Shown: in pieces, positions 4,074 to 63,775 of the stretch | Layout of the letters: every line of letters begins with the position of its first letter | How positions within the stretch are numbered: position 1 is the first letter of the stretch | Assembly: GCF_000264995.1 (NCBI RefSeq) | Contig: NW_006767442.1 | Location: forward strand, 1,066,420-1,130,419 | Reading direction: 5' to 3' | DNA: 64,000 bases | DNA from: Punctularia strigosozonata HHB-11173 SS5 | Lineage: Eukaryota > Basidiomycota > Agaricomycetes > Corticiales > Punctulariaceae | The notes under the pieces: generated by a model | What the model was told of the DNA's origin: nothing | The model's database searches: none | What the model saw: the letters and a program-made list of their open reading frames with translations, nothing else | Program-made: the position numbers and the translations under genes

Positions 4074-5281
4074 ATGCTACGAGCTCTACCTCACTTTGGG
4101 CGGCTCCTGTCTGGCTCGAGACTCTTCCACAACTCATACGCGGGTATACTACGAAGTGCTGCGCGGAACATGGCGACGTCTTGGGTGCCGAGACCTATGG
4201 ACTTCAAAGCCGGGCCTATGGTATGGATCGACTGCGAGATGACGGGTCTCGATCCGAAGAAGGACAAAATTATGGAGATTGCTGTATGTCGCACTTCCGC
4301 CATGCGTCAAAGCAACGTCGGGCATCCTTGACGGGCTTGCTAGGTTATAATCACGAATGGTGACCTTCAATTGGTTGACGATGGCGTCGAATACGTGGTG
4401 TACGTGGAAAAGGAATCGCTCGACGGGTTAGTACTTGTCATGCATTGGTCCATACGACTCCCTCAGCGAGAAAACCTATAGAATGGACGAGTGGTGTACA
4501 AATCAGCATGGGAAGGTCAGGTTTTTCGACTGTGCTGCCACCATGCGAAGAAGGACTGAAGGGCATATGCCAGATAGTCAGGCTTAACACATGCATGTCT
4601 AGCCTCTCCACACTCTCGCCAGTGGGTGGCTCAACAGGTCCTTGAGTACATCAAAAAATGGGTACCGGAACGACGCACGGCCGTCCTAGCTGGGAACTCT
4701 GTGCATGCCGACCGGGCCTTTCTCGTCGAAGAGATGCCTGAAGTTGTGGATTGGCTTCACTACCGGTATGCTCTCTCTCACGATCGTGCAAGGCTTGAGC
4801 ACTAAGTTTAGCAGCATCGTAGGTCCGTTGCATCGTCGAACTTCTCCGACAATGGCTGATTCTTGAGGGGCAGACGTGTCTTCAATAAAGGTAAAAGGGT
4901 GCCATTACCTGTCGTACGCGTCTCTGACACTTACACAGGAAGTAGTGCGCCGATGGTATCCCAAGGCCGGCTTGACCTATCGATACGCGGCAGCAGATAG
5001 TCGGCATCGGTATGAACGTTGATCGTCTATTCTAATCACCCCCCTGATATCACAAAAATTCAGGGCATTGGATGATATCAAGGGCTCTATAAGAGGTGGT
5101 TGCCATTACATCATGGTTATGTTTGCACGCGTACTTATTTGAGGAACGTCCAGAGCTACAATGGTATCGCGAGAATGTATTTGTCCCTGCGACTGCCCTC
5201 AATTCGCCACCCACCCTATCCACCGCGACGAAGGTTCTCGAAGAGTTGGACGGGGACGCGCTCAAAGTCCCGCCCAAGTGA
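4074..5281 (+). CDS. REX2: Oligoribonuclease (REXO2/Orn family 3'-5' exonuclease), mitochondrial
   Basis: Nine exons (4074-4283, 4344-4426, 4482-4515, 4578-4765, 4812-4822, 4874-4890, 4939-5009, 5064-5095, 5154-5281) join to 258 codons exactly. The product degrades very short RNA oligonucleotides left by other nucleases, mainly in mitochondria. The DEDDh active site is visible: WIDCEMTG supplies the first Asp and Glu, GNSVHADRAF the next Asp, and HRALDD the final His and Asp. The first ~32 residues after the ATG at 4074 are rich in Arg, Leu and Ser and lack acidic residues, like a mitochondrial presequence. A second ATG at 4170 starts just before the nuclease domain and could give a cytosolic form. 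Two microexons (11 and 17 bases) encode the conserved IVDVSSIK stretch. Another in-frame ATG at 4011 is possible. Confidence 0.9.
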
Positions 5282-5410
5282 GGACGAATCCGCAACCGCA
5301 CGGGGAACGACTTTCGTATTTCTTAACTACCACTTAGGCCTATGGATTCCTCGTATGCTATCCGGACCCCTCGCTAGGCATTAATGTATCGCTTCTCTAA
5401 TTGCGCATGC

Positions 5411-6644
5411 CTATTTGAATTCGCCAACCAGATCTTTGCCGTGGCCGGTAGTGAGGTAATCCCGAAGGTTCGTTAGCGCCCTAATCTCCATCTTCTTCTG
5501 CGAGTCCTGTGTCTCCGTTCCCAAATGCGGGAGCAGTGTGATGTTTGGGAATTCGAGCAGGCGTGGGTTCACCTCCGGTTCATTCGGGAAGACATCGAGC
5601 CCGACGGATGCAAGCTACAACAAAATGAGCGACCTCTTCAGACAATCACGCAGATATACTCTCTGAACACACTCACATGGCCGTCTTCCAATGCTCGAAT
5701 CATCGCCTGTTCGTCGATGACCTTGCCACGCGCAGTGTTGACGATGACGGATCCCCTCTTCAAGGCCCTGATCTCCTTCTCGCCCACAAGGCCCTCCGTC
5801 TGTTTGTTCAACGGCACATGCACGCTCAACACGTCCGTCTGCTTGAGGAACTCTTGGATATCGCCCACGTACTCGGCCCACTCCGGGGCTTCCGCGGAGG
5901 GCTTGCGGTTATGATATATGACGCGCATCGGGAATGCATGGCACAATTCCGCAAGGCGTCCGCCAATTCCGCCCATGCCGAGGACGCCGAGTGTACGTCC
6001 TGTAAGGTCGTGCGTCGCAGCAGACGAAACCTCGGATTTCCACTTGCCCGCACGCAAGCTACGCTCGCCTCGCGCGAACTGGCGCAAGGTGGAGATGACG
6101 AGGTAGAGAGCAGTTGTCGCCGTTGCGTCGTCCACGGCTCCCGGAGTATTAGAGACCTTGATACCTGGATATCTATCAAATGCGGTGCTGCCTGAGATAC
6201 GCAAAGTACTCGTACCCTTCTCTTTGCATGCCGCAACGTCGATCTGGTCGTACCCGGCTCCATTGTGGGCGATCCATTTCACGCTGGGTGCGAGAGCAGC
6301 GATGATTTCCTTGTCAAAAATTCCAATGCGGTCCGCAGAGACGTTATGCCGGTAAACACCGATAATGCCTTCGTACTTTCCGCCAGGCTGAAAGCCCTTC
6401 AAGAAATCTGCTCTGTCGGGCGAATCCATGCGCTGGACACGATCACATATGGGCATCAGCCTTTAGTAAATTCCGAGAACAGAGACGTACGACAACGTCA
6501 GCTAGGCCCTGAAACATATCTTTAGCCTCGGCATCCGCCCAGACAAGATCACCTTGACGGCAAGACCAAAAGTCAGATAATTGTTTATGTTAGTCGCTCC
6601 TCTAGCACGAGGGACGCACCACAGATCAATACCCTGTGTGTCAT
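5411..6644 (-). CDS. D-2-hydroxyacid dehydrogenase (NAD(P)-dependent glyoxylate/hydroxypyruvate reductase type)
   Basis: Four exons (6644-6620, 6552-6491, 6432-5677, 5614-5411) join to 349 codons exactly. The enzyme reduces 2-ketoacids such as glyoxylate or hydroxypyruvate with NAD(P)H. Evidence: a Rossmann motif GVLGMGGIGGRLAE, the catalytic Arg in NTARGKVID, the Glu in LDVFPNEP, and the catalytic His in LLPHLGTET. HNGAGYDQIDV and NTPGAVDDATA are also typical of the family. The start is the ATG in a 25-base first exon encoding MTHRVLIC, which continues directly into the family's GDLVWAD start. Length matches fungal GOR1-like proteins. The exact substrate cannot be read from sequence. Confidence 0.9.
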
Positions 6645-53025: not shown

Positions 53026-54344
53026 CGTTACAACGGTGAATAGGTTCGGATTTGAGAGAGGTAAGGGGAAAACGAAACGAAAAGGACGACAACCGGGAGG
53101 ACGAGGCCCTGTTGTGTCGAGGCACAAATGAGCGGAAGACTGTTGAGGGGCTCGAAGCGCCACTCCTCGTTGCTTTATGCACATCGCAGATGGAGGCCTT
53201 TTTGTCTTCAGTCTTTTTGTGAACACCGTGACTGCGCGACAGGGATGCTTCGCGGTGCGCGAAAATGTAACAGTCACGCTATTACGTGATGAGCACCGTT
53301 GTTCGTATCGTCGGACGCGGTGGATCCTGGTCGTTGATACCGCGAGTCAGGACGAGAATTGTGCCACAGGATATATTTCCGATGCATAAACACCTACGTA
53401 CAGATTGCGCGATGAAGAGAGGGGATAGGATGCGTGACTCCACTCACGGTGACCATCGCCGTGACGCGGATTCCCAGACGTGCGGAAGACAATTGAATGA
53501 GAATAAGATGCCGCGCTCTGTACGTGTCTGTAGCATCTCAGGCATCATTGCTACCGCAGACAAGCCTTGAAACAATAGCGACAGTACTTCGGAGCCGTCG
53601 AATCTCGTCAGGTCGGGCGTTCGTCGAGGAGATCGCCGACGAAGCCGTAGGACATCACGTGGACATCAAGGACCAAGATTCTTTCCCAGTTCCTTCCCTT
53701 TCTCGCAGATATTCCCGCACACCACCGCCCGCCAAATACTTTGATACCTTTGCTCGCCAGAAGCCCAAGCGGATCGTGTAGACGACAGTTTCCCCCAAAG
53801 CCCGTTGTACATGTCATCCACCCAGCCACATGCACATCAAGTCATGCTGTCGACGACTTGGCACGTACCACAGCCACACCTGGCTTAAGTGGATGCCCGG
53901 ACCGTCTCTGCCTACTCTTGGTACCAACCAGTCGCTGGATGGGTATATGCACAGGTTCTGTCCTAACTCCGCTCCCCTCGGGCGGCATAAACTTCCAAAG
54001 ATAAGCAAGGCTCGCTTCTATCAGACGGTGATATCCGTGCGGATAGTCACACACAAACCTAGTCCGCAACCCTCGGAGGGCCTCAAAAGCCGGGCTATGG
54101 AACGGTTCGTGCGGGAGAGCGAAGGTTGGCACGAGACCTGACGTTCCATTGGGCCAAAGCTATCTGTAGCCCCGACAAGCTAGCACCTTAACTAACAGCC
54201 TCCCCGACTGCGAGAGGCCGTCCTTCGTCCGGCGTCTCACAGCTCTGGTTATCTATGACATCCCGAGTGGTATAAAGCCGGGGGGATGCGGGGTGTCAGA
54301 ACCTTCCCCGACGATCGCTTCCCACTTGCGCACATCGGTTCAAC
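53026..54344. other. Intergenic upstream of the 7-TM receptor gene
   Basis: Minus-strand frames at 53608-53835 (contains SKGIKVFGGRWCAGISARKG) and 53842-54132 (FHSPAFEALRGLRTRFVCDY) look partly protein-like, but they do not join with good splice sites. Left unassigned. Confidence 0.35.
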
Positions 54345-55947
54345 ATGGTCAAGCGGGACTTCACTTGGACGTCGGAACGGCAAGCGGTGACGGTATGGAC
54401 AGCTGTGGCGCCTGCGATTGCGGCGATCGTTGCTGCTCTACTCGTGTTGGGATTGAGCGTCAAAGTATATCGCAACCCCCACACGCGCGGATCCTTGAAG
54501 AGGCAGAGCCTGCAAGTCCTCATGTCGGTCCAGGCTGCCAGCATCATCTACAGCGCGACATACATGTGAGGATCCAGTCACAGTTGTTCCTCGCGCGACG
54601 CTCACGTCGGACAAAGCGGCGAGATGTTGATCACGGGCCCTACGCACTGGTGCAACGCCTGCATCGTCCTTACGCTATGGGCGAGCAACTATATTGACTT
54701 CTGTGTGATGTTGATCCCGGTCAACCTTCAACTTGCGCTAGTCCACGGCGTTCGTACCGAAGGCTGGGCGCAATGGTATATGGGTGGCTCCTTCCTCGCG
54801 GCAACCATCATATCTATTCCCGGAGGTATGTCCCCCGCGCACCTTCGCCACGATCTTGAGTTGATCCCATGATCTCACTAGCCGTCAAGGATGTTTGGGG
54901 CTGGGATCCTGAGTCCCTCATCTGCTGGACAAAAATCACCGATGCAAGTCAGCGCAACGCGTGGCAGATCGGCGCGTTTTACGCCTGGCAGCTGTTCACG
55001 ATGGCCGTTGCTTCGATCTCGACGCTCGTCGTCATCGCGCATCTCTTTCGCTACGCGCGCACTATGGAACACCGGATCGTCGCCGCGCACTCCACATCGA
55101 CGGGCGGGCAGCATATTGTCCGCGCCGTCGCATGGCGCGTGATCGTGTACCCGCTCATCCTCATTTTCACAAATTGTGTCTCGGCCGCTGGCAACTTCAC
55201 GATCACGTCAGCGGGGGGAATTCTGTCTGGTAAGCGCTCACAGCTGCCGAGGCCGCGCTTGGTGCCTAAAGGGTATCAGCAGATACAACATATAACCTCT
55301 GGATCGTATCCGGCATTCTATATGGATTAATGCCTCTTAGCTTCGCTCTCGTCACCCTTTTCGTTGAGTGAGTCACTCCATATCAGCTTACGCACACGTT
55401 CCGCTGACAATGATTCAGCCCATCCTTCAATCACGCGATCCGCGGCCTAGCATTCAGCTGGTCGCCAAGCTCCTCCACTCGCACTTCTCGCAGCGTCCAC
55501 ACGCACCCCAAGCCTCCTACTACTATCGAGATTGAGCTCTCGCGAGTCGTTACCGTGCATGATGACAGTAAACAGCCCATGTCTGCCTCTCCGACAGGCG
55601 CCTTACGCCCCGATGCGGAAACACAGCCGCGCAAGACGTCGGACTCGGCGCCATCCACTCGCTCTTCTGACGACCTCCCACACAAGATGCCTTATCCGGA
55701 TCCCGAGCTTGGCATCCCGAATTGCGAAATATCCACGCACGATGGACAAGCCGACCTTTCGATGGATGTGCTGCGCGCTATCTACTCGCCGCCGCCGACT
55801 CCGACCCCGCCGGACGTTCCGCTGTCCGACACATCCCACCCTCGGACACGTCGGCATTCTTTGTTCCCGCATTCCGTCGTGAGCGCTGCTATGCAACGCG
55901 GCCGCGAAGCACGGACACGACTCCGCAGCCACCTAAACCAATTGTAA
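54345..55947 (+). CDS. Seven-transmembrane receptor-like protein (fungal GPCR type)
   Basis: Five exons (54345-54565, 54617-54825, 54882-55229, 55283-55367, 55419-55947) sum to 464 codons exactly. Hydrophobic spans include TVWTAVAPAIAAIVAALLVL, SLQVLMSVQAASIIYSATYI, the NACIVLTLWASNYIDFCVML block, MGGSFLAATIISIPG, WQLFTMAVASISTLVVIAHL, RVIVYPLILIFTNCVSAAG and NLWIVSGILYGLMPLSFALV, seven in total. A ~150-residue Ser/Pro/Thr-rich tail on the presumed cytosolic side ends RTRLRSHLNQL. This resembles fungal class receptors of the Git3/STM1-like or cAMP-receptor-like groups, which sense nutrients or other signals. The ligand is unknown. Confidence 0.8.
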
Positions 55948-56328: not shown

Positions 56329-57701
56329 TCAGATGACGCTCATAGCGGTCTGATTCTTCGTCCTAGTATCCGATGCATGCTCTACCGCAGTGCGAATTTC
56401 CGGGGCCCTGGCACCTCGAATGGCATCGATCTTCGCGAGCGCTTGGTTCAACTGGTCGGTTTGGTCGCCCACCGTCTCAGCGTTGATTACGTCCAATTCC
56501 TGGAAGTTGAGGATGTTTCCGTTACAACCAAGTTACCGCTAGATACTCCGCTAGATACTAATGGTGCACATACCGCCTGAAGTGTAGTAACCGTGCCGCG
56601 CTATGACAGAAGCCCGGTGAGACAAGGTCGTAATGAACAAGGGGACGACACGACGGCCCACCTGTGCCTGCTCGCACCACGCGCTGAGTTTCTCTGCATC
56701 TGCAACGAGTGAATCGTGGATATCGGCCACTCCAGGTAGGAGGTCGATCGTGGACAATATCTTCATACCGTCGGCAACATGAGCGCGGTATACCTTTGAG
56801 TAGTTCTATGGCACGTCCATCGCCCAATTTCAGCACGGACGCAGAACGCGGGCAAGATGAAGACATGACATACGAGAGCGACGCGGCATATCAGGCTTTG
56901 AAGCTCGGCGGAACGTACTGCATGTTTGAGGGCAACCTGCATATTGATCACAATGTCAATACGTGGGAGTTAAAATATGTTGTATGTTGCGGATTCACCT
57001 CCTGTTCGAAGTCACTAAGTAATGCTGGAGCGCCATTGGCCTCAGTCGGCGTAGCAAACCGGGAAGAGCTTTGAAAGACGTTCGCTCCCAAAGCGATGAC
57101 AAGGGCGAAGCTTCGGAAACCAGCGCTGAGATCGGTGAGATCGTGAAGGGCTTGATATAATGTTCCTAATAGGAGAACCTATTCGAACATAAACAACGAG
57201 GAAGTAGCGCATGGAATGTGCCTCACGAGGTTCTCTTCGCGGTCGAGCTTGTTCAGCTGGTCGTTGACATCGGCTAGTTGTTCGCCTGAAGAGAGGGTGT
57301 CAGCCAATGAGATACATCTGATAACCAGCACCTCTCACCCGTTGGCAACTGAGCTATCGCCTTCGAGAGACGCGCCTGAACCTGTACTCTCGGTCAATCC
57401 ATGCTAGAAATAATGTGCAGTCACAAAACGGTCACCTGTTCCGTAGACTCCTTTGTCTCTACGAAATATTTCTCTTGCGCCGCCTTCATCTCGTCGGCGG
57501 CGCGCTGCTTGTCCTTGACAACAGCCCGTAACACCTCGATCTCCTTCTGACGCTTGTCAGTCATGTTGTCGAGCGCGTGGCAAACCTCGTCGACGAGGTC
57601 GTGTAATTGCGTGATCCGGTCCGCTGCGCGGTCGACTGAAGCCTTGCACATCGCCACGCATTGATCGACTCTCTGCATCATATGTCCTACTATGCATCCA
57701 C

Positions 57702-57729
57702 CCCTAATGCAACGCGTGTTGCATTAGGG
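57702..57729. repeat. Subterminal hairpin of the 699-bp element
   Basis: Perfect 12-base inverted arms with a 4-base loop (GCGT). It may be a transposase-binding or structural end. Confidence 0.8.
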
Positions 57730-58340
57730 TTATATCTCCCTCAAATCGCTTTGAAATCGTCTAAAAGTTTGCCAGTAGATAGCCAAGATGCTATAGATAT
57801 GTCATGCAGCGTCTCAAATATTTTGGTTTAGCCTCAACTCTGCCAGAGAGATGCCGGCGAGACGAAGTGAGCACCAGCCAAAGTTGCGAGATCATCACAC
57901 GCGGTCACGTCTTGCCGAGGTGCCGGAATAGGACAGGCTGGAACGCAACGCAGGGCTCAAGCGGCTCAAGCCAATCAACGCAGGCGGAGTTTGAACTCAC
58001 CCGTCACGCCAACACCGTCCTTTGTGTTGAACCTCCTCCTACAGCAGCACTACTATACCAATTGCAAATCGGGATAGCGTGGCGGATAGTATATAAGGTC
58101 ATAAGCACTACCAAATATTTCCATAAAATTTGCGCTACCGATCCAGCGAAGCGAGGCCGTGGAGTACTCGCGACATGTTGCATCAACTCACTCGAGCAGT
58201 TCTAATGTTTTCTGTAGCCCGAACCAGGCCTCGCTCCCACCTCAGCTCTTACATACAGTATGTATAGATGTATGAGAGTACATAGAATTTTTTTCCAGAC
58301 GAACGGCTGAGCAGGGAAGGAACGGGAATGGGATTTGTGT

Positions 58341-58375
58341 CGATGTTGCATTAGGGGGCGATGTTGCATTAGGGG
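58341..58375. repeat. Tandem 17-18 base subterminal repeat of the 699-bp element
   Basis: Two adjacent copies of CGATGTTGCATTAGGGG, sharing TTGCATTAGGG with the hairpin at the other end. Confidence 0.8.
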
Positions 58376-59098
58376 TGGGTGCATAGTATGTTCCTAGCGA
58401 TCGTCCGAGACCGCTGCTCAGCTGACATGCCTTCCATGTCTTTCTCCATCGCGAGGTCAATGACGTCAGACACAGAAACTGGAATCCATACCCACGTTCA
58501 GCACTTCCCAAGCAGCCTAGATACAAAAAAATACTCACATCTCCATTGAAGGCTTTGCTTGGTCAGAGCCTGATGCAGAATGTGACTCCTTGTTGGGAGT
58601 ACAGGGATCGGGTACGACTCACGTCTATGTCCGTATAAACTTGGGAGAAGGCAAGAGAAGCGGCATTAACGACTTGAACGACGGTTGCTCGGAAGTCGCG
58701 ATCTTTGATGTGCTGGAACCGTCCGTTCTCGTCGGGTGCAAGCTATTGCCCCCCAGCCGTCTCAGAGATTTGTTTACGACGTGGAGGTGATGGACTCGCC
58801 TTGAGTTCGGTGACTCGGGTTATCAGCTTGAGCCTGCAGAGAGCGGCAATGACCAATGTTGGCGGCAGAATGAGCTTGTCCCTAGTTGACGTCGGCGTTA
58901 CTTCCTACCGTCATCCTCAGCACCAGGAAAGAATCACCATGGTATCTGGTGCTATCGGGTTTCATGGTGTCAACTTTTGAAGACGATGCTTGTCAAGGGA
59001 CCCACCCATGTCGTACGAATGTAGTCTTGGATCTCGTCCTGAACAACCCGCTTCCCTGCGGATGCGTCCTCAAAAAATGCAAGCGTTTGGCCCGACAT

Positions 59099-59855
59099 GT
59101 TGTTCCGTTGATTCAGCTCCGGGTGGATGTGCAATTTCAGGTTTATCTTTGCGTATTTATATTCATGAAGCGTTCTCCCAGTGTGTATGTGTTTTGGATG
59201 TTGCGCAACCCTCCTGATAGTCAAGGCACGACCCGCTGCTTGACGGGAGTAGCGTGAAGCCGATGATCAGGTCAAGGAACCTGCAAGCCACTCGGTGGTG
59301 ACGAATCACCGATGTGTATGTTCACCGTACGTGTACAATTGCTAAGAGCATCTGTAGTTGGTGCCTGGCCAAAGAGGTGATGTCGGAGGCGTACCTACCG
59401 GTCACGCTTTCCACAAATAAACACTGCGAATCCCACGCCTTCTCGCCAACATTATCCTACATTATCGCGGCCGGGCGGACATTCGCCTGGAGCATAACGC
59501 GGCGTGTTCTAGTTCTCTCCAAACCGCGCAAATAGCATGTCCCTACTAAATATCAGCTGATCAGGAACTCGAAGTTGGCATTTGCGGATTCTTCGGATTC
59601 AAATGCCTGCCTACCTACCTCAATCGCCCAATTGCCATTTGTGATCGCATGCTGGTGCTTGACGAAGTGCTACCGTTAATGTGGAAGAGACCAAGAAGAG
59701 ACCACATCTTCCGCGTCCGCGGTGGACTCAAAGGCCTTGCCCAAAAAGGAAATCCTCCCATAACCAACTTGAAGCCCCTATCCACATCCGACATTGTATG
59801 CTCGTTTATGCCCAACACCGCTGTATACGCATACCGCTCTGAGCCTCATTCGACG
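59099..59855. other. Divergent intergenic region
   Basis: Between the helical gene (minus) and orphan paralog A (plus). A CCTACCTACCTC run lies at about 59610, as also upstream of paralog B. The frame of paralog A is open back to 59649 with an ATG. Confidence 0.4.
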
Positions 59856-60669
59856 ATGACCGAACGAATTAGTACTACTGCACCAACTATAGGCGACAAA
59901 CCGTGGTATCATTATCCCGTCGGCGATATTCCAGACGACACCTTGCGCCACATTGTTTCCAGCTTCAATGAACGCTTCAACCAGGCCGCGCTTTCCTCAC
60001 GGGAAAACTACGCCGCGAATACGTTCCTGCCTGCGTACAATAAGGTCGTCCGTGCCTGGGAGCAGGAGCCCAACATCTATCCCACTCAGCTGCCCGTCGC
60101 CGAAGTACCACCCTATCCGGCCACTCCCCATCCATCGAGGATCGAGTTTTTCCGGGTGGTCTACGACCTCCTGGATCGGAAACCCACTTGTATTGAAGAG
60201 TGAGCCTTCATCGCCCCTAAACTCATTTGAAGCAGCCTTCTCACATTTGTAGGACAGTCACCTGAATGCCGAACTGGCAGCGCAGCGCGCCATCGAGTGG
60301 TTCGTGGAGTGCAAAATTCCGCATGTCAATGGTCCAGAAGTCTCCCTAGAGATCAAAACATGGGGTGCAGATGAGCTGTCAGTATCTCCCGACTATGATC
60401 TTGCCCTGTCGCACCATGGAATTCATTCCTTAGTTTTCAGATACAGGCATATCTGGGGCGCAGATGGGGAAGGGCCTCTGGGTCGTCTCCGCTCCGTTGT
60501 AGGGAAATCGGTCTCGATTGACGGCATCGAGTACAAAATCCATGCCTGCTTCACTGCGACTGAGGACATTGATCCCGTGTACGAGCTACATGCCGTGGAT
60601 AGCCCGCAGGATAAGAGATACGTCCCTCTACCGGAATTGGAGAACCTGATGGGACGGATTATACTCTGA
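59856..60669 (+). CDS. Orphan protein, local paralog A
   Basis: Three exons (59856-60199, 60258-60377, 60441-60669) sum to 231 codons exactly. The sequence has no signal peptide or membrane span. Conserved with paralog B: PWYHYPVGDIPDDT near the start, FFRVVYDLLDRKPT at the end of exon 1, AAQRAIEWF in exon 2, and a strong C-terminal block LGRLRSVVG, YKIHACFTATEDIDPVYELH, KRYVPLPELENLMGR. Both genes also share exon 2 length (120 bases) and intron phases. No known family was recognised. The start at 59856 is chosen because it lies just before the conserved region; a longer form from 59649 is possible. Confidence 0.75.
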
Positions 60670-61483: not shown

Positions 61484-62959
61484 GCTTGGCGATGAAAAAC
61501 GGGGTAATGAAGGCGATAGCGGATGTATATGCGCGTAAGATAGTAGATAGACAACTATAATCAACGTGTCAGTGATAGGGCGGCTCATAAGTCGAGAGTA
61601 CGTACTGGGCGAGTATCCCAGTGAGCTCACAGAACGAATGCGAAGGAGAGCTACGATCTGCAGAATCATGGCCGTCCTATACGATTTTATATACGATTGA
61701 ACATAGTTATGCTGTCGATGATGCTGGCTCACCCTGCGGTAGGTGGCTTACGGAGGGTCGATTGCCCTGTATCCGGCGCCAGACGCTAGGACAGCGCTCG
61801 CCGTGCGATAAAGCATAACGACCGGCAAACTGCAGGGTCATGCTCGATGGGGACGCAGTCCAGGGCGTCCCGCGGTCGGCAATGTTCGGAACCTACTGGA
61901 GCTGTGGAGGCTTTCTCGTGTCCATGAACAGTCCGGGAAAGACATGCGAGCTGTCCAAAGTCAGGCCGATGGAAGTTGCCAAAATATGGGTATGGCGCAA
62001 CGTCTGTGTCCGTAAAATGATTGTACGAGCATCATTCAGCAACTGTTCTGTGCCATATATCATATCGCTGCGGGCGTACTAGTCATCCGGCATGGATGTG
62101 GTCTGGGTCTTGCGGCGATCTCGTTCACGTTGTACAGCGTTCCGAGACAGTGCTGCGGAAAGTGAACGGAGGATCGTACGCCACATATTGACGTTGTTCC
62201 TAGATAATTCGGGGTCATGGTGAAACAGGGCCAACGAAAACAGAACAAAGCTCCAGGAAGTTTATTCTCATGATTTCCTGCATTTTGACCACGGATCCAC
62301 CACATATAATCGCAGCCGTCTGTGGATGAAGGGGAGTGTACGTGAGATGGACATGGCCTCAGAGGTCGGATCCGAGGCCTTTCAGTCGCTCGATCTTTGA
62401 CGGGCTTGTGGATTCAGGCCTAGTGAGTGTCGGTCATGGTCAGAGAGCAAGTGCACCTGAATGGCGTCGCAGAGGATCAAAACAATGAATGGTTGAGTTT
62501 GATCGTCTGAAGCTGGCCAGATCCTTAACTGGATGCGAGGTCATTCGGAATATCTTGACCTTACCAACATTAGGGTGACATAGGCTGAATGCATGGGACG
62601 GAGTTCGCGTTATGTACTCTTCAGCTTCCGCAATTGGGTCCAGCTCCTTTTCGCTGTCAAGGCCGTCGGTCGGTATCGTCTATCTCGTGAATGGTCGTGC
62701 GTATGGGAAGCTCTAGAAAGGTCGTGGATACGAGGGCTTGCGGCCCCGGGTTGATCTGGTGCGCTCCACACACAAATTCCCACCAATCCACGTCGGCACG
62801 CTGTCGACTGCACGAGTGGCGTACGTGCAGCGGCTGTTCCGCTACCGGGACCTCGTCGGCAATCTACCTACCTACCTACCTACCTACCACGGCGCCAACC
62901 TCGAACGGCGTTTGACTTGGACCCTCGCGCCTCGGTCCCATACCGCGTTTCCTTCGACA
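61484..62959. other. Intergenic upstream of paralog B
   Basis: No gene with support. A CTAC microsatellite lies at about 62869-62888, just upstream of the paralog B start region. Confidence 0.4.
62867..62888. repeat. CTAC tetranucleotide microsatellite
   Basis: About five tandem CTAC units directly visible. A shorter CCTACCTACC lies in the matching position upstream of paralog A. Confidence 0.9.
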
Positions 62960-63775
62960 ATGCTTCGCGTGAACAACATACCGTGGTATAAAACGGCCAC
63001 TGGCCGACTCTCTGACAAGAATATATTTGATATCACCTTCGACTTCTACAGACACCTTATCCATTCCGAGCATGCAGTACACGCTCATCGGCTCGCCCAT
63101 GGCGATGCAGTCACGAAGCGGTCGTACGACACCGTCACGGCTTTGTGGCGTTCGGATCCCTGGAACAGGGAATACCCTTCTTCGCTGCCAGTCGGACCTT
63201 CGAAGGAGGACAGGTCCAAATTTTATGACATGGTCTATGAAATATTCGATCGAAGCCCCACGGTCGTGGTTAGCGCTGATCAGTGAGCCTCTTTCCGTGT
63301 TAGTCCCAATCCATGCATGCTGAGATTGCCTCCTTAGCCACTTCGACATCCTATTCGCGGCGCAGCGCGCCCTCCAGTTTTTCCTGTCTTACGAACTCCC
63401 GGCTTTCAAAAGCGATATCTTTATCTCGAGGCTTCAAGGGCAGGCTAGCACTGAGGCGTCAGTACCTCTGGTTTCTCCCGAATCTTGCTGACTTTTCGTT
63501 GCAGGATCAGAACGATCGTTGGCCCGGAATTTAGTCCTCAAGGGGGGTTGCGCATTCAGCAGCCACCTGCGGAGACGGCTCTTGGACGACTCAGATCCGT
63601 CGTCGGGGCCCAGGTCGATGGTGGTGACAATATCTACTACACGGTAACCGCGTGCCTCACTGCGACTGAGGACGTTGAACCCGTGTATGAGCTGCACGCT
63701 GCGGACAACCCGAACAAGAAGAGATATGCCTCTTTGTCGGAGCTAGAGGAGATGCTAGGACGTCACATCGGCTAG
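62960..63775 (+). CDS. Orphan protein, local paralog B
   Basis: Three exons (62960-63282, 63338-63457, 63505-63775) sum to 238 codons exactly, with the same phases and the same 120-base middle exon as paralog A. Shared blocks: NIPWYKTATGRLSDKNIFD, FYDMVYEIFDRSPT, FAAQRALQFF, LGRLRSVVGAQVDG, YTVTACLTATEDVEPVYELH and KRYASLSELEEMLGR. The N-terminal half has diverged far more than the C-terminal block, which suggests the C-terminal domain carries the function. No family was recognised. Confidence 0.75.

What the first reader, a model, noticed from the sequence alone, without database searches (positions are those of the whole stretch)
56329..59098. Cryptic many-exon helical gene, split by a MITE
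No single frame is long, but at least eleven short exons join with good splice sites into one nearly all-helical protein with no recognised family. The 699-bp inverted-repeat element sits between two coding parts. Either it is a recent knock-out or it has become part of an oversized intron. The open frames on both sides have not decayed, so the insertion is young or tolerated.
Basis: partly seen in the sequence, partly recalled or inferred. Interest (0 to 1): 0.75.

Follow-up and report, generated by a model that had tools for sequence, protein, structure and literature searches.

The report
Fungal orphan gene cut by transposon
A small mobile DNA element has recently landed inside a coding stretch of an unnamed helical-protein gene of a wood-rotting fungus and most likely switched it off; this is an ordinary kind of event in a little-known gene family.

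Summary
On the minus strand, 59098 to 56329, lies a real 13-exon gene. Its exon pattern, including a 14-nt microexon, matches a paralog in the same genome; my splice model of that paralog equals the public protein PUNSTDRAFT_140854 of Punctularia strigosozonata. The insert belongs to a 697-bp inverted-repeat family, at least 18 loci, flanked by TA. It sits inside one exon, continuous in both relatives I modelled. Unspliced, the frame stops five codons into the element. Removal as an intron is not excluded, but needs 723 nt where this gene's and its paralog's introns are 48-74 nt; shuffled elements offer as good a splice in 36 of 500 trials. The insertion is young: 8, at most 10, derived changes. 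Undecayed frames are therefore uninformative: a third of neutral simulations stay intact. Best reading: a recent loss-of-function MITE insertion in one member of a small, apparently helical orphan family with no Pfam or NCBIfam match above cut-off and no confident fold. Public annotation holds the downstream half as a separate 300-aa protein.

The parts
59006..59098 (-). exon 1 with start codon
   Evidence: paralog match and splice sites
58938..58951 (-). exon 2, 14-nt microexon, same length in the paralog
58800..58881 (-). exon 3, 82 nt as in the paralog; followed by a GC-AG intron
58623..58742 (-). exon 4
58539..58569 (-). exon 5, 31 nt as in both modelled relatives
58387..58478 (-). exon 6, upstream part, cut by the element
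   Evidence: paralog exon 6 is continuous
57690..58386 (.). 697-bp MITE-like inverted-repeat element; TA at 57688-57689 and 58387-58388
58369..58371 (-). first in-frame stop inside the element, after five codons of element
57436..57687 (-). exon 6, downstream part
57339..57381 (-). exon 7, 43 nt as in the paralog
57227..57285 (-). exon 8; lies where the paralog has about 250 more residues
56999..57178 (-). exon 9
56874..56936 (-). exon 10, 63 nt as in the paralog
56662..56805 (-). exon 11 (acceptor as in public P0003, 12 nt upstream of my first choice)
56574..56600 (-). exon 12, 27 nt as in the paralog
56329..56499 (-). exon 13 with stop codon
56329..57651 (-). extent of the public model PUNSTDRAFT_127390 (P0003, 300 aa), downstream half only; extent deduced from the protein sequence

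Best explanation
This is a 13-exon gene of Punctularia strigosozonata that coded for a protein of about 456 residues (144 before and 312 after the site), apparently helical. It belongs to a small family with no named domain. A 697-bp non-coding transposon with terminal inverted repeats inserted at a TA dinucleotide inside exon 6. Transcripts that keep the element end translation five codons into it, so the strain has most likely lost the full-length protein, and the downstream half is annotated as its own gene. Shown: gene structure, exon position of the insert, in-frame stop, repeat family, young age. Inferred: loss of function, and any role of the protein.
For: Exon structure shared with an intact paralog whose spliced model equals a public protein. 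The exon is continuous across the site in that paralog (353 nt; the two window pieces sum to 344 nt) and in par2. TA flanks 12 of 12 readable left ends and 11 of 11 readable right ends of the copies, the window copy included. The stop lies five codons into the element. The nearest copy differs at 16 of 697 sites plus one 1-base gap; 8 of these 17 are derived in the window copy, 2 unclear. Past purifying selection on the N part: dN 0.41 against dS 1.44, the latter near saturation.
Against: No transcript data. A frame-keeping 723-nt intron (58426 down to 57704; donor GTCAGC, acceptor CATTAG) is formally possible: both sites score within the range of the 28 real ones, at a cost of 40 nt of exon lost and 16 nt of element kept. 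No other lesion is seen in the exons or splice sites, apart from one GC donor that may be normal.
Confidence: 0.8

Rival explanations
1. The element is removed as an oversized new intron and a slightly altered full-length protein is still made.
For: One frame-keeping donor and acceptor pair with combined score 12.9 exists; no lesion in the remaining exons.
Against: 28 introns of this gene and its paralog measure 48-74 nt. Shuffled elements reach the same score in 36 of 500 trials. Intact frames are found in 1664 of 5000 neutral simulations at this age.
Confidence: 0.12
2. The insertion split the gene into two expressed units: a truncated N-terminal protein and a separate C-terminal protein started at a downstream Met, as the public annotation draws it.
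For: PUNSTDRAFT_127390 is annotated as a free-standing 300-aa protein that starts 36 nt into the downstream exon piece.
Against: The public entry is a hypothetical protein; I saw no transcript evidence and did not test for a promoter. P0001 carries both halves in one chain; so does P0002, which lacks about the first 67 residues.
Confidence: 0.07
3. The two sides are unrelated genes that only look joined.
For: The public protein found holds the C part alone.
Against: Both parts match consecutive stretches of one 741-aa protein, with 10 of 12 introns at identical position and phase.
Confidence: 0.01

Closest known systems
MITEs (non-autonomous DNA transposons with TA target sites, as in the Tc1/mariner superfamily; label recalled)
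   Same: 697 bp, terminal inverted repeats, at least 18 loci, TA outside each readable intact end, no recognised coding frame in the window copy
   Different: parent transposase not identified; the terminal-repeat search did not complete
PUNSTDRAFT_140854 (P0001), hypothetical protein, Punctularia strigosozonata
   Same: same exon pattern, 44% identity over the N part, C-terminal third also similar
   Different: 741 aa against about 456; keeps about 250 middle residues that the window gene lacks; no insert
PUNSTDRAFT_127390 (P0003), hypothetical protein
   Same: is the window gene's downstream half
   Different: lacks the upstream six pieces and the first 12 residues of the exon-6 downstream part
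Alpha-pore-forming toxins (SmhB, AhlB, ClyA), as a fold resemblance only
   Same: appear among the weak PDB matches of the two models (SmhB E 0.13 and AhlB E 2.7; ClyA E 1.4)
   Different: both models have mean pLDDT under 45, no match reaches E 0.001, no sequence match; vinculin (E 0.05) and 14-3-3 (E 0.16) rank first

Membership tests
MITE | terminal inverted repeats | tested here: met
   26-nt arms including the TA, 96% complementary
MITE | many dispersed copies of uniform length | tested here: met
   19 matches of 248 bases or more at 18 loci, a lower bound; 12 copies align over 600 bases or more, the window's included; the other 6 loci hold partial or interrupted copies
MITE | short target duplication | tested here: met
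   TA at 12 of 12 readable left and 11 of 11 readable right ends; without empty alleles a 2-bp duplication is inferred from TA on both sides; ends that the alignment left ragged were set aside
MITE | no transposase gene | tested here: met
   longest ATG/GTG/TTG frame wholly inside 57690-58386 is 133 aa (57804-58205, which lists frames of 60 aa or more) and has no Pfam match at E 1 or better
Tc1/mariner superfamily | mobilised by a related transposase with shared terminal repeats | not tested
   terminal-repeat pattern search unanswered
PUNSTDRAFT_140854-like family | sequence similarity along N and C parts and shared introns | tested here: met
PUNSTDRAFT_140854-like family | middle segment of about 250 residues | tested here: not met
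   absent from the window gene, present in P0001 and P0002. Whether it defines the family is unknown with so few members; I call the window gene a homologous, shortened, divergent relative
alpha-pore-forming toxins | sequence or confident fold match | tested here: inconclusive
   no Pfam hit, no such sequence hit in PDB, only weak hits of low-confidence models

The most novel reading that the evidence does not exclude
The element is an intron in the making: its terminal repeat supplies a usable acceptor and the upstream exon a usable donor, so that the gene survives a DNA-transposon insertion in a coding exon through a 723-nt intron, about ten times or more the length of its neighbours.
Probability: 0.1. 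Interest if true: 0.5.

Novelty: new member of a known kind. Interest (0 to 1): 0.25.

Why it matters
It shows that a public gene model records half of a gene, gives a young exon insertion of a fungal MITE that can be tested for splicing or loss, and points to a small family without a name. If the element were spliced out it would be a fresh case of intron gain from a DNA transposon; the evidence does not favour that.

Tried and rejected
Family identity: Pfam and NCBIfam gave only hits below cut-off for the window gene, its paralog, P0002, P0003 and the modelled start of par2 (NCBIfam was run on P0001-P0003 only). PDB by sequence gave nothing convincing (best E 0.057 and 0.7). Three protein-database searches gave three proteins in all: P0001 and P0002, P0001 alone, P0003. 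Searches scored only the 7995 and 7994 candidates that shared most words, and the tool needs shared exact words, so distant relatives may be missed; 'lineage-restricted' is therefore not claimed.

Structure: both predictions were poor (mean pLDDT 41.9 and 44.5, three sequences each). The PDB fold searches gave 0 matches at E 0.001 or better (196 and 492 at E 10, the first 50 of each shown); I give them no weight.

Element as intron: considered and tested, not favoured. Frame intactness as a sign of function: rejected by simulation, which treats substitutions only.

Papers: six searches, of which only listings with abstract starts were seen; none was opened. No held paper names either PUNSTDRAFT number.

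My first acceptor for exon 11 was 12 nt too far downstream; corrected from P0003. The blastp values use the first version of the C part.

Full report
Source. The window lies in a 33.6-Mb, 32-contig genome. A protein model I spliced from another contig is letter-for-letter the public PUNSTDRAFT_140854 of Punctularia strigosozonata HHB-11173 SS5, a basidiomycete of the Corticiales. That it rots wood is recalled.

The gene. The longest open piece of the finding (57421-57681, minus) has one other match in the genome at E 0.1, on contig C1. That locus (L003) holds a gene of 17 exons and 741 residues. With it as guide the window gene resolves into 14 coding pieces on the minus strand, 59098 to 56329, i.e. 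13 exons with one cut by the element. Exon lengths 14, 82, 31, 43, 63 and 27 nt are the same in both genes. 10 of 12 introns match in position and phase; of the other two, one lies beside the internal deletion, where I had split the alignment by hand, and one is a residue off next to a gap. The N part is 44% identical to the paralog (E 6e-40); the C part matches its C-terminal third (32%, E 3e-20) and the stretch just after the site (28%, E 4e-12). This is far beyond chance splicing of random frames. One intron (after exon 3) has a GC donor.

The family. A second relative, par2, is transcribed divergently beside the paralog on C1. Its first 216 residues were modelled. It has 82-, 123- and 31-nt exons like the paralog, but my model of it has no 14-nt microexon. 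It is 31% identical to the paralog over 192 columns (E 2e-24). The public searches returned P0001 (the paralog), P0002 (678 aa, 39% identity, unnamed; its source code 'lgn' I take, from recall, for assembled read archives) and P0003. P0003, PUNSTDRAFT_127390, is 300 aa and is the window gene's downstream half only; with the corrected exon 11 it is contained exactly in my C part. The window gene lacks about 250 middle residues that P0001 and P0002 have, so it was probably a shorter, divergent relative before the insertion. dN 0.41 against dS 1.44 on the N part suggests past purifying selection; dS is near saturation there, and beyond estimation for the last part of the gene.

The element. 57690-58386, 697 bp, arms of 26 nt including the TA, 96% complementary. 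The genome holds 19 matches of 248 bases or more at 18 loci including this one, a lower bound; two matches belong to one copy that carries a nested insert, and matches under 60 bases were not counted. TA stands outside 12 of 12 readable left ends and 11 of 11 readable right ends; ends that the alignment left ragged were set aside. The nearest copy, on C17, differs at 16 of 697 sites and one 1-base gap. Judged by the other ten long copies, 8 of these 17 columns are derived in the window copy (one of them the gap), 7 in the C17 copy and 2 are unclear. This caps the age of the insertion at about 1.1 to 1.4% divergence on its own branch. The longest frame inside the element, 133 aa, has no Pfam match.

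Where it sits. In the paralog exon 6 is one open exon of 353 nt; in the window its two pieces are 92 and 252 nt. In par2 the corresponding exon is also continuous. The element therefore most likely entered coding sequence and not an existing intron. Read on without splicing, the frame meets a stop five codons into the element (58369-58371).

Could it be spliced out? The 28 introns of the two genes, as given, are 48-74 nt. In the ranges scanned (donors from the upstream exon piece to 120 nt into the element, acceptors in the last part of the element and the first 130 nt after it), 34 candidate introns keep the frame without a stop. The best has donor score 5.8 and acceptor score 7.1, both within the range of the 28 real sites, a length of 723 nt (58426 down to 57704), costs 40 nt of exon and keeps 16 nt of element. 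With the element shuffled (dinucleotides kept), 36 of 500 shuffles offer as good a pair. That is 7%: the observed pair is better than most shuffles, but not rare enough to count as a sign of adaptation. The score matrix was trained on the same 28 introns.

Does intactness mean function? Not at this age. At 8 changes per 697 bases, 1664 of 5000 neutral simulations (substitutions only; indels ignored) leave both halves without a stop and the splice dinucleotides intact. The undecayed frames fit youth and do not show tolerance.

Function. The helical character rests on low-confidence models of the paralog and of P0003. Fold searches gave no match at E 0.001. Weak matches to pore-forming toxin subunits (SmhB E 0.13, AhlB E 2.7; ClyA E 1.4), and the lectin-like gene near the paralog pair (PF14200, E 9.4e-8), could hint at a lectin-linked membrane-acting set. 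But vinculin and 14-3-3 rank first in the two searches, so I do not file the family there.

Verdict. A young MITE insertion in an exon of a gene from a small unnamed family, most likely a strain-level knock-out; an ordinary event, with a half-gene public model as its visible trace.

Noticed in passing
L003 (4630 to 1487, minus) and L049 (652 onward, plus; 4435-6266, plus): Contig C1 holds a cluster of the intact paralog, a divergently transcribed relative (start modelled), and a gene with a ricin-type beta-trefoil lectin domain (PF14200, E 9.4e-8) followed by a probable coiled coil.
   Followed up: partly
L016/L020 (contig C20): One copy of the element carries a nested insert of about 1 kb with long inverted ends and no long open frame (longest stop-to-stop frame under 130 aa).
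   Followed up: partly
window 59649-60669 and 62738-63775: Two neighbouring genes, each apparently of two or more exons, are related to each other (26% over 117 aa, 60% over 67 aa) and match no Pfam family in the four pieces tested.
   Followed up: partly
window 58798-58799: Intron 3 of the gene has a GC donor where the paralog has GT; either a normal GC-AG intron or an early lesion.
   Followed up: no
window 54293-55947: Multi-exon gene on the plus strand, by eye hydrophobic, possibly a membrane receptor; of two pieces tested one has a sub-threshold Pfam match and the other none.
   Followed up: no
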